From contig NZ_CP127174.1 in assembly GCF_030273315.1 (NCBI RefSeq), positions 1,488,001 to 1,552,000 of the forward strand: 64,000 bases of DNA, in the 5' to 3' direction. The notes under the pieces are model-generated. The model was given only the letters and a program-made list of their open reading frames with translations. It did no database searches and was not told the origin of the DNA. Shown piece after piece: positions 29,537 through 33,565 of the stretch. Made by a program: the position numbers and the translations under genes. Position 1 is the first letter of the stretch; the number at the start of each line of letters is the position of its first letter. This stretch comes from Natrialbaceae archaeon AArc-T1-2 (GTDB taxonomy: Archaea; Halobacteriota; Halobacteria; Halobacteriales; Natrialbaceae).

Positions 29537-30115
29537 TCAGAACCCGAGGACTAGCGCCGAGACGCCGATGAAGATGACCATCCCGAAGACGTCGACGACG
29601 TTGGTGACGATCGGGATCGTCGTGTCGTCCGGGTCGATCCCCAGCCGGTAGGAGGCGTAGGTCGCGGCGAAGCTGAAGACGATCGCGATCACGGCCACCG
29701 ACATGCCGCTGACGAGCGAGATGAGCAGTAAGGTACCGAGTCCGAGCGGCGAGCCGATGACGGTGCCGACCAGATACGCGCCGATTGCGAGCGCGGTAAA
29801 GACCGTCACGGCGAGTGCCAGGATTGCGCCGACGTTCGCCCACAGCACCCGGTCTTTCGGGTCGATCGTCGTCGTTCCCAGGTGAAACCGGGTCGACAGT
29901 CGCGAACTCAAGATCGCACCGAGGTTGCCGCCCATGTCGACCATCGTCGGCACCATCACCGCCAGAAGACCGTACCGTTCGAGCATCTCCTCTGCACCCT
30001 CTAAAGTGATACCAGCCCAGAGGACGATGATCGAGAGCACGATTAGCAGCGGAAACATGTTGCCGACGATCGATCGCCAGTCCCACGTCCCGAGCGAGCC
30101 CTGGGGGACGACCAT
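29537..30115 (-). CDS. Half-size MgtE/SLC41-type divalent cation transporter, second subunit
   Basis: A 192-residue membrane protein equal to one MgtE/SLC41 membrane domain, with about five hydrophobic segments and no CBS or N-domain. Signatures are MVPTMVDMGGNLGAILSSRL after helix 2 and GIDPDDTTIPIVTNVVDVFG near the end, the residues lining the cation path in MgtE. Its ATG overlaps the stop of its partner gene by one base, so the pair probably forms one heteromeric Mg-type transporter. The cation is inferred from the family. Confidence 0.85.
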   Translation of the reverse strand: MVVPQGSLGTWDWRSIVGNMFPLLIVLSIIVLWAGITLEGAEEMLERYGLLAVMVPTMVDMGGNLGAILSSRLSTRFHLGTTTIDPKDRVLWANVGAILALAVTVFTALAIGAYLVGTVIGSPLGLGTLLLISLVSGMSVAVIAIVFSFAATYASYRLGIDPDDTTIPIVTNVVDVFGMVIFIGVSALVLGF

Positions 30116-30687
30116 CAGACGAGCACCCCCACGAGCGTGACCGCGAACAACATGAACAGCATGCCGAAGATGTCACCGAGCGTCGTCACGATCGGACCGA
30201 CGAGGTTGTCGGGATCGTAGCCGTACCTGAAGCCAGCGAAAATCAACGCGAGCAGCCCGACGATCATCACGACCGAGGTCAACAGGCCGGCGATCAGCAT
30301 GATGCCGACGAGTTCATAAAGCGCCGCAGGATCCTCCCAGCCTAACACGAGCAGTGCGAGCCAGGTGATCACGCCGATCACGATCGAGATGCCGATCCCG
30401 TTGACGAACGAGGCGATCACCGCATTCACGAGCCGGTCGTTGCGCTCGAACCGCGGCGGGATCAACCCCTGATGGAGCCCACTCGCGATGCGCCCACCCA
30501 GCGCGCCGTAGACGTTTCCACGCGTGGCGAGAAAGACGGGGATCATCACGAACAGCCCGGTGAATCGCTCGAGTTCTTCGACCATCCCCTCGAGAACGAT
30601 CCCGGCGAAGAGCCCGCCGGCGAGTGCGATCAAGAGGATCGGAAGCGCCTCGCGATAGATCGACCAGAACTCACCTCTGACGCTCAT
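30115..30687 (-). CDS. Half-size MgtE/SLC41-type divalent cation transporter, first subunit
   Basis: A 190-residue partner of the gene behind it. The membrane domain has IPVFLATRGNVYGALGGRIA after helix 2 and GYDPDNLVGPIVTTLGDIFG before the last helix, conserved positions for cation binding in MgtE/SLC41. It lacks cytosolic gating domains, so any regulation must differ from that of full MgtE. On the minus strand TTTAACAA lies about 25 bases upstream of the ATG, a likely TATA box, with an imperfect palindrome (ATTGG...CCAAT) just before the start. Confidence 0.86.
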   Translation of the reverse strand: MSVRGEFWSIYREALPILLIALAGGLFAGIVLEGMVEELERFTGLFVMIPVFLATRGNVYGALGGRIASGLHQGLIPPRFERNDRLVNAVIASFVNGIGISIVIGVITWLALLVLGWEDPAALYELVGIMLIAGLLTSVVMIVGLLALIFAGFRYGYDPDNLVGPIVTTLGDIFGMLFMLFAVTLVGVLV

Positions 30688-30901
30688 ATTGGGTAGTCGA
30701 CCAATTCCTTGTTAAAGGTAGCGTGAACGTGTGACTGACGCCCGACTGTGCCTCGAGCCGATTCGTCGTGCCGTCGCCGTCACGGCGTTCGACTGCTCCG
30801 ACGGCAAGCCGTCCGTCTGTGATCGACACCCATGTGAAGTAATACTGACAGTAGTACTAGAGGAAAACTGATTTTAGCCCCTTCTAATAACGAGCCACTG
30901 T

Positions 30902-31069
30902 ATGTTAGATACCAACCACAGCAGTCGAAACGGTACCGGTACGGCGACCGACGACGGCGATCACGAACACGGACCGACGCTCGAGGAACTGATTCTGGAC
31001 CTGCTCGAGGGCGAGTTCGCCGGCGTAATCGACTCACACACGCGAGGTGAGGTGTATGGAGGCCGGTGA
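30902..31069 (+). CDS. Small protein overlapping the start of mgtE, 55 aa
   Basis: A 55-codon ORF from ATG at 30902: a polar Thr/Asp/His start, then an amphipathic helix TLEELILDLLEGEFAGVIDS and a short tail ending RGEVYGGR. TTTTAG lies about 30 bases before the ATG, so the transcript start is at this codon, not at mgtE. It overlaps mgtE by 14 bases in another frame. It is either a real leader protein or what is left of the MgtE N-domain after a frameshift. Codon use matches the neighbours. Confidence 0.5.
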   Translation: MLDTNHSSRNGTGTATDDGDHEHGPTLEELILDLLEGEFAGVIDSHTRGEVYGGR

Positions 31070-32093
31070 TCGCGACCTCGAGTTCCACGCAGACCGCGTC
31101 GCCGAGATCGCCGACGACGAATACGTCGCCGTCACCCAGGACACGTTCGTCGAGATGGCGATCGAGGAGTTCCGGAAGTTCGACCCGGTCTCCGACGAAA
31201 CCACCGTCTACTACCTCTACGTCACGGACAACTACGGTCGGTTAGTCGGCGTCATGTCCCTTCGGGAACTGCTCAACGTTCCGGAGGACGACGTCGTTGA
31301 AGATCACATGGAGACGGACCTGTACACGATCGACGCCGACGCCGACCCAGAGTTCGCCGTCGACGAGATCGTCGAACGGGACTTCCCCGCGATGCCGGTC
31401 GTCGACGACGAGGGCGTCCTCGTCGGCGTGCTCCGAACCGACGACATGATCGAGGTCGTCGAGGAGGAAGCGACCGAGGACATCTTGAAGAGCGCGGGCT
31501 TTTCCTTCGCCGACGTCGAGGAGACCCGGAGTTCGCTGATCCTCGAGTCCTCGATCACGCGGATCCTCCGGCTCCGGCTGCCGTGGCTGATCGTCGCGCT
31601 GGCCGGTGGCTTGCTCGCCGGCGGCGTCATCGAGGCCTACGAGGACACCCTCGAGGCCGTCGTTGCACTCGCCTTTTTCGTGCCCGTCATCATGGACATG
31701 GGTGGCAACGTCGGCACCCAGGCGTCGACGATCTTCGTCCGCGGGCTGGCGCTCGGTCACATCGACGACCGGAACGCGATGAAACACTTCGCCCGCGAGG
31801 GGGTGATCGGCCTGCTGATCGGGCTCATCATCGGCGGCATCGGTGCGGGTGCGGCCTACGTCTGGCAGATGGACGAACCGTACGCCGTCGAGCTGGCGAC
31901 GGTCGTCTTCGTCGGCCTCGTCGCGGTCTGTGTCGTCGCGAGCGTCGTCGGCTACGTCATCCCGTGGCTCATGAACAAACTCGGCTTCGACCCGGCCGCG
32001 GCCTCGGACCCGCTGATCACCACCGTCAAGGACGTGACCGCGTTGCTGATCTACTTCGGCCTCGCGGCCGTCCTGCTGGCTGAGTTGCTGTAA
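31056..32093 (+). CDS. mgtE: MgtE magnesium transporter with CBS pair, lacking most of the N-domain
   Basis: A 345-residue transporter. After about 20 residues comes a CBS pair (DDEYVAVTQDTFVEMAIEEF to LVGVMSLRELL, and METDLYTIDADADPEFAVDE to LVGVLRTDDM), which in MgtE senses Mg and ATP. A linker helix and five membrane segments follow, with VPVIMDMGGNVGTQASTIFV and GFDPAAASDPLITTVKDVTA, the cation-path motifs. The usual helical N-domain of about 130 residues is missing. ATG at 31056 has GAGGTGAGGTGT just before it, a possible ribosome site; GTG at 31047 is an alternative. It lies downstream of the 55-aa ORF on one transcript. Confidence 0.9.
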   Translation: MEAGDRDLEFHADRVAEIADDEYVAVTQDTFVEMAIEEFRKFDPVSDETTVYYLYVTDNYGRLVGVMSLRELLNVPEDDVVEDHMETDLYTIDADADPEFAVDEIVERDFPAMPVVDDEGVLVGVLRTDDMIEVVEEEATEDILKSAGFSFADVEETRSSLILESSITRILRLRLPWLIVALAGGLLAGGVIEAYEDTLEAVVALAFFVPVIMDMGGNVGTQASTIFVRGLALGHIDDRNAMKHFAREGVIGLLIGLIIGGIGAGAAYVWQMDEPYAVELATVVFVGLVAVCVVASVVGYVIPWLMNKLGFDPAAASDPLITTVKDVTALLIYFGLAAVLLAELL

Positions 32094-32571: not shown

Positions 32572-32967
32572 TCAGACCGCGACAGCGATCACGACCCACG
32601 CGAGCCCGATCGCCGCGACGGCGACGAGCAGGTTCGCTGCGGCGACGGCGACGGCGAGTTTTCGGTCGCCGCGTTCCCAGATCTGGACCGTCTCGACGGA
32701 GAACGACGAGAACGTGGTGAACGAGCCACAGAAACCGATCCCGGCGAGTCGCAGCGTCGCGTCGTCGACGCCGGCGAACAACAGGGCTCCGAACAGGAAG
32801 CTGCCGAGGACGTTGACCGTAAACGTCGCCGCCGGGACGTCCTCCCAGCTCACGTACAGGTAGACCCAGTGACGAGCGAGCGCCCCGAACGCAGCGCCGG
32901 CACCGACGAGGTGAGTTGGCTCCGGCTCGAGTGCGAGCCCCATCGCGAACAGTGTGGCGTCGATCAC
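32572..32967 (-). CDS. crcB: CrcB/Fluc fluoride channel subunit, second copy
   Basis: A 131-residue membrane protein with four hydrophobic segments. NVLGSFLFGALLF and GFCGSFTTFSSFSVE are the Fluc signatures, the Phe/Ser/Thr track that passes fluoride. Its start overlaps the stop of the other crcB by four bases (ATGA). Paired crcB genes usually form a dual-topology heterodimer that expels fluoride. The pair lies downstream of a fluoride riboswitch (33372-33451). Confidence 0.94.
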   Translation of the reverse strand: MIDATLFAMGLALEPEPTHLVGAGAAFGALARHWVYLYVSWEDVPAATFTVNVLGSFLFGALLFAGVDDATLRLAGIGFCGSFTTFSSFSVETVQIWERGDRKLAVAVAAANLLVAVAAIGLAWVVIAVAV

Positions 32968-33356
32968 GGCCGATCACCGCCGGATATCCGGCGGGCGAGT
33001 TCCCGCCCGACCAGCACGCCCGCGATCCCCAGTCCGTAGTTGCCGGCGACGACGGCGACCGTCTCGAGTGGGCCGCCGGCGAGTGCCACCTGGGCGGCGA
33101 ACGTGCTGTAGGTCGTCAGCGAGGAGAGAAAGCCGGTCGTAAAGACCAGATTCGCCCGGCGATCGAGCAAGCCGGCGTACTGGGCCTCGTAGGCAAGAAA
33201 GCCGAGTATGGCGCTACCGAGGACGTTGACGAGCAGGATCGCCTGGACGTCCGGAAGCTCTCCGAGGGCGGCGTACCGGAGGTTCGCGCCGGCGAACGCG
33301 CCGACGGCGATCAGTGCGAGCGTCTCGAGTCGGACGAGTGGGTGATCGCGTGACAT
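32964..33356 (-). CDS. crcB: CrcB/Fluc fluoride channel subunit, first copy
   Basis: A 130-residue partner of the downstream crcB. VNVLGSAILGFLAYE and FTTGFLSSLTTYSTFAAQ are the fluoride-channel motifs. MSRDHPLVRLETLALIAVGA starts at 33356. The ATG lies 16 bases after a fluoride aptamer on the same strand, which chooses this start: any longer reading would run through the RNA structure. Fluoride binding to that RNA is expected to raise expression of both genes. Confidence 0.94.
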   Translation of the reverse strand: MSRDHPLVRLETLALIAVGAFAGANLRYAALGELPDVQAILLVNVLGSAILGFLAYEAQYAGLLDRRANLVFTTGFLSSLTTYSTFAAQVALAGGPLETVAVVAGNYGLGIAGVLVGRELARRISGGDRP

Positions 33357-33371
33357 GGCTGACAGTGGACA

Positions 33372-33451
33372 GGGACCGTCAGCCGAACGCAGTGGGTGTA
33401 CTGACAGTCTGACCCGTCGTCGGCGGTTGGGTCGGGCGGGCCCCATCGCCC
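33372..33451 (-). promoter_or_regulatory. Fluoride riboswitch (crcB RNA motif)
   Basis: On the minus strand the RNA begins GGGCGAUGGGGCCCGCCC, which differs by only one base from the first 18 bases of the crystallised Thermotoga aptamer as I remember it. Pairings: GGGCG with CGCCC (pseudoknot), GGGGCC with GGUCCC near the end (P1), and GCCGA with UCGGC (P2). ACCGCC and CGGCUGACGG match the conserved strands around P2. The P2 loop holds an extra hairpin of about 30 bases. It ends 16 bases before the first crcB ATG, so control may be translational. Confidence 0.88.
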
Positions 33452-33565
33452 GGAGCGTGCGGCGTCGGTTTTCGGCGGGTGACAATGAGGGTTGCGAAAC
33501 GGTCTCGGCGGGCAATGACTTGCACGGACGCCAGCGTTTATGTGAGGGGGTCACCGTCTACCGGT

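What the first reader, a model, noticed from the sequence alone, without database searches (positions are those of the whole stretch)
33372..33451. Fluoride riboswitch with an expanded P2 loop controls a haloarchaeal crcB pair
The sequence shows a nearly exact aptamer core (first 18 bases differ at one position from the Thermotoga aptamer as I recall it), plus P1 and P2 pairing strands and the conserved CGGCUGACGG. The P2 loop carries an extra hairpin of about 30 bases. It ends 16 bases before the first crcB ATG, with no terminator, so control may be translational or by blocking initiation, unlike bacterial terminator switches. Fluoride sensing in a hypersaline organism is a rarely described setting.
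Basis: partly seen in the sequence, partly recalled or inferred. Interest (0 to 1): 0.78.

Follow-up and report, generated by a model that had tools for sequence, protein, structure and literature searches.

The report
Haloarchaeal fluoride riboswitch guarding crcB start
In front of two fluoride-export genes of a salt-loving archaeon sits a fluoride-sensing RNA switch that standard annotation misses because one loop is enlarged; comparison of 86 relatives suggests that without fluoride it folds over the gene's start site and so blocks translation, a type of natural switch with almost no experimental precedent in archaea.

Summary
The feature is real. On the minus strand, Rfam Fluoride (RF01734) matches 33459-33363 with 26.6 bits. 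That is below the gathering score (34) because of a 34-nt P2 insert, yet it is the best match in the genome (E=4e-5; next 0.09), directly 5' of a tandem crcB (Fluc) pair. Across haloarchaea, 69 distinct leaders carry the same aptamer before crcB. P1 shows clear compensatory changes, and 99.4% of the cells in the named structure pair.

GGCUGACGGU (aptamer 3' strand) pairs over 10 bp with ACUGUCAGCC, which abuts the crcB AUG. Relatives keep this complementarity (Stouffer z about 9.6, one sequence per genus, 33 genera). CAGC(C/U) lies directly before AUG in 49/86 riboswitch leaders, in 0/22 crcB genes without the riboswitch; CAGCC ends 1/88 other gene starts. No Shine-Dalgarno-like site occurs in 57 Natrialbaceae-type spacers. 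(2) The Natrialbaceae-type aptamer has C at position 41, a highly conserved U whose change to A abolishes fluoride response in B. cereus. (3) The P2 expansion is typical of Natrialbaceae (median 44 nt, up to 177).

Verdict: genuine, new variant of a known class; most likely a translational ON switch. Fluoride binding itself is untested.

The parts
33484..33499 (-). Conserved promoter-like element TTTCGCAACCCTCATT (BRE/TATA position), about 34-49 nt upstream of the aptamer core
   Evidence: Column conservation in 58 Natrialbaceae-type leaders at -44 to -31; promoter role inferred
33371..33451 (-). Fluoride riboswitch aptamer (RF01734-like), including linchpin U48 at 33371
   Evidence: cmscan 26.6 bits, E 4.1e-5 genome-wide
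33447..33451 (-). Pseudoknot strand 5' (GGGCG), pairs with CGCCC 33438-33434
   Evidence: sequence; pair counts 99.6% paired for the 4 core pairs
33434..33438 (-). Pseudoknot strand 3' (CGCCC)
33439..33444 (-). P1 5' strand GGGGCC
   Evidence: pairs with GGTCCC 33377-33372; in relatives GGAGTC/GACTCC, GGGGCT/GGCTCC, GGCGTC/GACGCC
33372..33377 (-). P1 3' strand GGTCCC
   Evidence: 100% of cells paired over 60 sequences
33421..33424 (-). P2 5' strand GCCG
33382..33385 (-). P2 3' strand CGGC
33386..33420 (-). 35-nt insert in the P2 loop (expanded P2)
   Evidence: relatives 6-177 nt, median 44
33378..33378 (-). C at aptamer position 41 (U in nearly all other fluoride riboswitches)
   Evidence: C in the Natrialbaceae-type group, U in 28/28 other archaeal and 30/31 of a haloarchaeal sample whose only C is the window itself
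33375..33384 (-). Switching strand GGCUGACGGU: part of P2/P1 and of the anti-aptamer helix
33357..33366 (-). Anti-aptamer arm ACUGUCAGCC, ends at -1 of the crcB AUG
   Evidence: 10-bp helix in the MFE fold; 0.005 against shuffles
32964..33356 (-). crcB1 (Fluc subunit, 130 aa), ATG start
   Evidence: PF02537, 55 bits
32572..32967 (-). crcB2 (Fluc subunit, 131 aa), GTG start overlapping the crcB1 stop by 4 nt
   Evidence: PF02537, 83.3 bits

Best explanation
A fluoride riboswitch at the 5' end of the crcB1-crcB2 mRNA that turns the operon on at translation. Without fluoride, the strand GGCUGACGGU (33384-33375), which carries the P2 3' strand, U38-A40-C41 and half of the P1 3' strand, pairs over 10 bp with ACUGUCAGCC (33366-33357), whose last base is at -1 of the AUG. 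This occludes the start site; no Shine-Dalgarno sequence is involved. Fluoride with Mg2+ locks the P1/pseudoknot/P2 aptamer and the A40-U48 linchpin, takes that strand away, frees the AUG, and the two Fluc subunits are made and export fluoride. Shown here: aptamer homology, covariation, gene context, mutual exclusivity of the two helices, and conserved complementarity at the start codon. Inferred: fluoride binding, direction (ON), and the translational rather than transcriptional step.
For: RF01734 match, E 4.1e-5 and best in the genome. 69 distinct leaders with aptamer plus crcB, most of them 10-20 nt upstream of the ATG. 99.4% of structure cells paired, 5 pairs with changes on both sides, covariation score 0.238 against 0.143 shuffled, 0/500. 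MFE fold contains the 10-bp helix next to AUG. Helix energy beats shuffled spacers: window 0.005, Stouffer z 9.6 over 33 genera, 3.4 even with the CAGCC part fixed. CAGC(C/U)|ATG in 49/86 riboswitch leaders versus 0/22 riboswitch-less crcB, Fisher p 2e-7; CAGCC|ATG in 1/88 other gene starts. In the full leader the expected switching-strand:arm pairs are 7.6 for the window versus 0.04 with a shuffled spacer, and predicted access of -10..+3 rises from 0.29 to 0.77 when the aptamer is locked. No SD-like site in 57/57 and no T-run of 4 in any spacer. The T. kodakarensis switch is presumed translational (PMC8241225).
Against: Position 41 is C; B. cereus U41A is fluoride-blind (PMC11077080). In the Natrialbaceae-type group with long stable P2 stems, full-leader folding favours the anti-aptamer helix over the shuffle mean in only 28 of 56, and some relatives (L049, L062, L066, L017, L029) lack a good arm. 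Folding energies ignore pseudoknots and molar KCl. Related sequences are not independent. No expression or binding data exist.
Confidence: 0.68

Rival explanations
1. Fluoride riboswitch acting on transcription: the anti-aptamer hairpin or the aptamer causes archaeal termination or pausing, as terminators do in bacteria.
For: Bacterial members mostly use overlapping terminators (PMC2864571). Six non-Natrialbaceae leaders have TTTT right after the aptamer.
Against: The window hairpin is followed by AUGUCACG with no U-tract; no T-run of 4 in any spacer. The helix is positioned on the start codon rather than at a fixed distance from the aptamer.
Confidence: 0.12
2. The Natrialbaceae-type RNA (C41) no longer responds to fluoride in the normal range: a decayed, constitutive leader or one retuned to a different ion or threshold.
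For: C41 throughout the Natrialbaceae-type group against U in 28/28 other archaea sampled; U41A abolishes response in B. cereus; L178 is a visibly decayed copy.
Against: P1, P2, pseudoknot, U38, A40 and U48 are kept under compensatory change, which a dead leader would not show. U-to-C is milder than U-to-A. The gene is still crcB.
Confidence: 0.15
3. No RNA function: a conserved DNA element (promoter or operator) upstream of crcB that happens to resemble the aptamer.
For: A conserved promoter-like motif lies just upstream.
Against: Compensatory P1 changes (GGGGCC/GGUCCC, GGAGUC/GACUCC, GGGGCU/GGCUCC, GGCGUC/GACGCC), which slid controls do not show. Variable P2 loop of 4-177 nt with kept flanks.
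Confidence: 0.03

Closest known systems
Fluoride riboswitch, RF01734 (crcB motif; T. petrophila and B. cereus aptamers)
   Same: Pseudoknot, P1, P2, conserved core with A6-U7-G8, U38, A40 and U48; upstream of crcB/Fluc
   Different: P2 loop insert of 35 nt; C41 instead of U41; score below the gathering cut-off; no terminator, start-codon-abutting anti-aptamer helix
Thermococcus kodakarensis fluoride-responsive riboswitch (Speed et al. 2018, as cited in PMC8241225)
   Same: Archaeal; presumed translational control of fluoride resistance genes
   Different: Hyperthermophile; its platform could not be compared here. The haloarchaeal one uses no Shine-Dalgarno sequence
Chloroflexi MAG crcB riboswitch (JAICVI010000062.1, L203)
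   Same: Very similar GGCGATGGGGCCCGCC 5' half, upstream of crcB, translational-looking
   Different: U41; GGCTCCTGAC pairs with GTCAGGAGGAGCC, masking a Shine-Dalgarno sequence
Synthetic theophylline riboswitches in Haloferax volcanii (PMC8241225)
   Same: Masking of the AUG region in a haloarchaeon gives ligand-dependent translation
   Different: Synthetic, different ligand, contains an SD sequence

Membership tests
Fluoride riboswitch RF01734 | Covariance-model match | tested here: inconclusive
   26.6 bits, E 4.1e-5 genome-wide, full-length 1-64, but below gathering 34; relatives without the insert exceed it
Fluoride riboswitch RF01734 | Pseudoknot + P1 + P2 fold conserved by covariation | tested here: met
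   99.4% of cells paired, 5 pairs with double changes, slid controls 31-59%
Fluoride riboswitch RF01734 | Linchpin A40-U48 and U38 present | tested here: met
   A33379, T33371, T33381 in the window; near-invariant in the alignment
Fluoride riboswitch RF01734 | Conserved U41 | tested here: not met
   C33378; C throughout the Natrialbaceae-type group, U elsewhere. A single base, so it is described as a variant rather than a canonical member
Fluoride riboswitch RF01734 | 5' leader of a fluoride-resistance gene | tested here: met
   crcB1 ATG 14 nt downstream, PF02537
Fluoride riboswitch RF01734 | Binds fluoride with Mg2+ | not testable with these tools
   needs probing in vitro
Translational (start-site occluding) riboswitch | Alternative helix mutually exclusive with the aptamer that covers the initiation region | tested here: met
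Translational (start-site occluding) riboswitch | Ligand changes translation, not mRNA level | not testable with these tools
   needs reporter and RNA measurements

The most novel reading that the evidence does not exclude
Natrialbaceae have a clade-specific fluoride aptamer variant (C41, hypervariable P2) that works in molar intracellular KCl with altered affinity or specificity, coupled to a Shine-Dalgarno-free platform that directly occludes the start codon: a natural haloarchaeal riboswitch with a platform type not yet demonstrated.
Probability: 0.35. Interest if true: 0.7.

Novelty: new variant of a known kind. Interest (0 to 1): 0.5.

Why it matters
Only one natural archaeal riboswitch is reported as experimentally shown (T. 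kodakarensis fluoride, per PMC8241225). This gives a testable natural one in relatives of the genetically tractable Haloferax, shows how SD-less translation could be switched by an RNA, and offers a natural change at a base thought to be essential in the fluoride pocket.

Tried and rejected
Default Rfam scan (gathering) found nothing here; explained by the insert. The whole-leader fold of the window is not more stable than shuffles (z -0.68), so global stability is no evidence; only the specific helix is. The P2 insert of the window as a conserved extra hairpin: rejected (z -0.24). Strict co-variation of position 41 with the arm: only suggestive (12 of 18 Natrialbaceae-type TCAGC(C/U) arms have G opposite C41). 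Swap test of groups: own partner better for the Natrialbaceae type, not for the others. Pattern hits GGCGACGGAGTTCGCC... recur identically in many genomes, differ from the aptamer and were set aside as presumed false. IMG/VR pattern search gave essentially no useful aptamers. No held paper on a natural haloarchaeal fluoride riboswitch was found; subscription papers are not covered.

Full report
OBSERVATION. Reading the minus strand, 33451-33371 is GGGCGATGGGGCCCGCCC GACCCAACC GCCG [35-nt insert] CGGC TGAC GGTCCC T, followed by GTCCACTGTCAGCC and the ATG of crcB1 (33356). A default Rfam scan reports only a tRNA in the window. With an E-value threshold, RF01734 Fluoride matches 33459-33363 (-), full length 1-64, 26.6 bits against a gathering score of 34. 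In the whole 3.36-Mb genome it is the best match (E 4.1e-5; next 0.087). The low score is explained by the P2 insert (34 nt where the model has 4). crcB1 and crcB2 are both PF02537 and overlap by four bases.

RELATIVES. In 391 haloarchaeal genomes, RF01734 matches 87 at E<=0.01, 34 above the cut-off; crcB is in 378. A pattern for the 5' half finds 114 genomes, against about four for the reversed control pattern, with a recurrent presumed false site to be subtracted. The exact Natrialbaceae-type pattern in named genomes hits Natrinema, Natrialba, Natronorubrum, Halopiger, Natronosalvus, Haloterrigena and others, plus one Chloroflexi MAG. Parsing gave 69 distinct leaders, 86 with the additional fetch.

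STRUCTURE. On 60 trimmed aptamers (A1) the named pseudoknot/P1/P2 structure pairs in 99.4% of cells; five pairs have changes on both sides; the covariation score is 0.238 against 0.143 shuffled (0/500); slid structures pair 31-59%. P1 occurs as GGGGCC/GGUCCC, GGAGUC/GACUCC, GGGGCU/GGCUCC and GGCGUC/GACGCC. The P2 loop is 6-177 nt (median 44) in the Natrialbaceae type against 4-24 (median 9) elsewhere. Long loops generally fold as P2 extensions (mean z -1.86 over 50), the window's own only weakly.

PLATFORM. The leader's MFE fold contains GGCUGACGGU (33384-33375) paired with ACUGUCAGCC (33366-33357), directly before AUG. The first strand belongs to P2, the U38-C41 joint and P1, so this helix and the aptamer exclude each other. 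Energy of the [aptamer 3' strand + spacer + AUG] hairpin: window -17.5 kcal/mol against a shuffled mean of -6.4, p 0.005; group mean z -2.1 (Natrialbaceae type) and -1.7 (others). Against real start regions of other genes: p 9e-10 and 1e-6. With one sequence per genus, Stouffer z is 9.6 over 33 genera. Holding the CAGC(C/U) part fixed, the rest of the spacer still adds pairing (z 3.4; 0.95 against 0.35 further base pairs). CAGC(C/U) directly precedes ATG in 49 of 86 leaders but in 0 of 22 riboswitch-less haloarchaeal crcB genes (Fisher p 2e-7). Several relatives use a different register: L011/L013 ATGACTC/GAGTCAT including two bases of the AUG; L054 GACGAC/GTCGTC where its sisters L025/L026 have GATGAC/GTCATC (sequences). 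SD-like sites are absent from all 57 Natrialbaceae-type spacers, and no T-run of four occurs in spacers. Caveats: in full-leader folding the effect is strong for the window (7.6 expected pairs against 0.04; access of -10..+3 0.29 free, 0.77 with the aptamer locked), but among Natrialbaceae-type leaders only 28 of 56 exceed the shuffle mean. Pseudoknots and salt are not modelled, and sequences from one family are not independent.

UPSTREAM. A conserved motif close to TTCGCAACnCTCATT lies about 31-45 nt upstream of the core in Natrialbaceae-type leaders; the others have TATA-like sequences at -34 to -29. This suggests transcription starting a few bases before the aptamer (inference).

POSITION 41. 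The window and the Natrialbaceae-type group have UGACG where the class has UGAUG. U41 was seen in 28/28 other archaeal aptamers, and in a sample of 31 haloarchaeal ones the only C was the window's own; L054 is a further C41 outside the Natrialbaceae type. U41 is described as highly conserved, and B. cereus U41A does not respond to fluoride (PMC11077080). U38, A40 and U48 are kept. Whether C41 binds fluoride is the main uncertainty.

LITERATURE. The crcB motif is known to be widespread in bacteria and archaea, often with overlapping terminators (PMC2864571). The only natural archaeal riboswitch reported as shown is the T. kodakarensis fluoride one, presumed translational (PMC8241225). AUG-masking synthetic switches work in Haloferax volcanii (same paper). 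No held paper describes a natural haloarchaeal fluoride riboswitch; that search does not cover subscription journals.

VERDICT. It shares every tested feature of the fluoride riboswitch class except U41 and the Rfam score cut-off, and is best described as a new variant with an expanded P2, C41 and an SD-free start-site-occluding platform. Ligand binding, direction and regulated step remain inferred.

Noticed in passing
window 33408-33401 (-) and 33366-33359 (-): The P2 insert contains ACTGTCAG, an exact copy of 8 bases of the anti-aptamer arm; it could also pair with the switching strand. Not seen in the relative L074.
   Followed up: partly
window 29540-32090: Three MgtE-family divalent cation transporter genes (one with CBS domains, two single-domain in tandem on the other strand) and a Usp gene lie next to the crcB pair; fluoride sensing needs Mg2+, but a link is speculative.
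   Followed up: no
window 33499-33484 (-); Natrialbaceae-type leaders at -45 to -31: Conserved TTCGCAACnCTCATT motif upstream of the riboswitch, not an obvious TATA box; may be a promoter variant or regulator site.
   Followed up: partly
L161, L162, L163 (Natrialba-type): P2 loops of about 150-177 nt made of tandem TCGGCTGG-like repeats, resembling the P2 3' strand itself.
   Followed up: no
L178: A visibly decayed riboswitch (P1 and 3' half disrupted) that still sits in front of an intact crcB start ending CAGCC|ATG.
   Followed up: no
G690:C3:201740-214613 and G630:C16:70098-82052: Six to seven fluoride riboswitches within about 13 kb in single non-haloarchaeal archaeal genomes: dense fluoride-response islands.
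   Followed up: no
L203: Chloroflexi MAG crcB riboswitch in which the P1 3' region pairs with a GGAGG Shine-Dalgarno sequence: an SD-masking counterpart of the haloarchaeal platform.
   Followed up: partly
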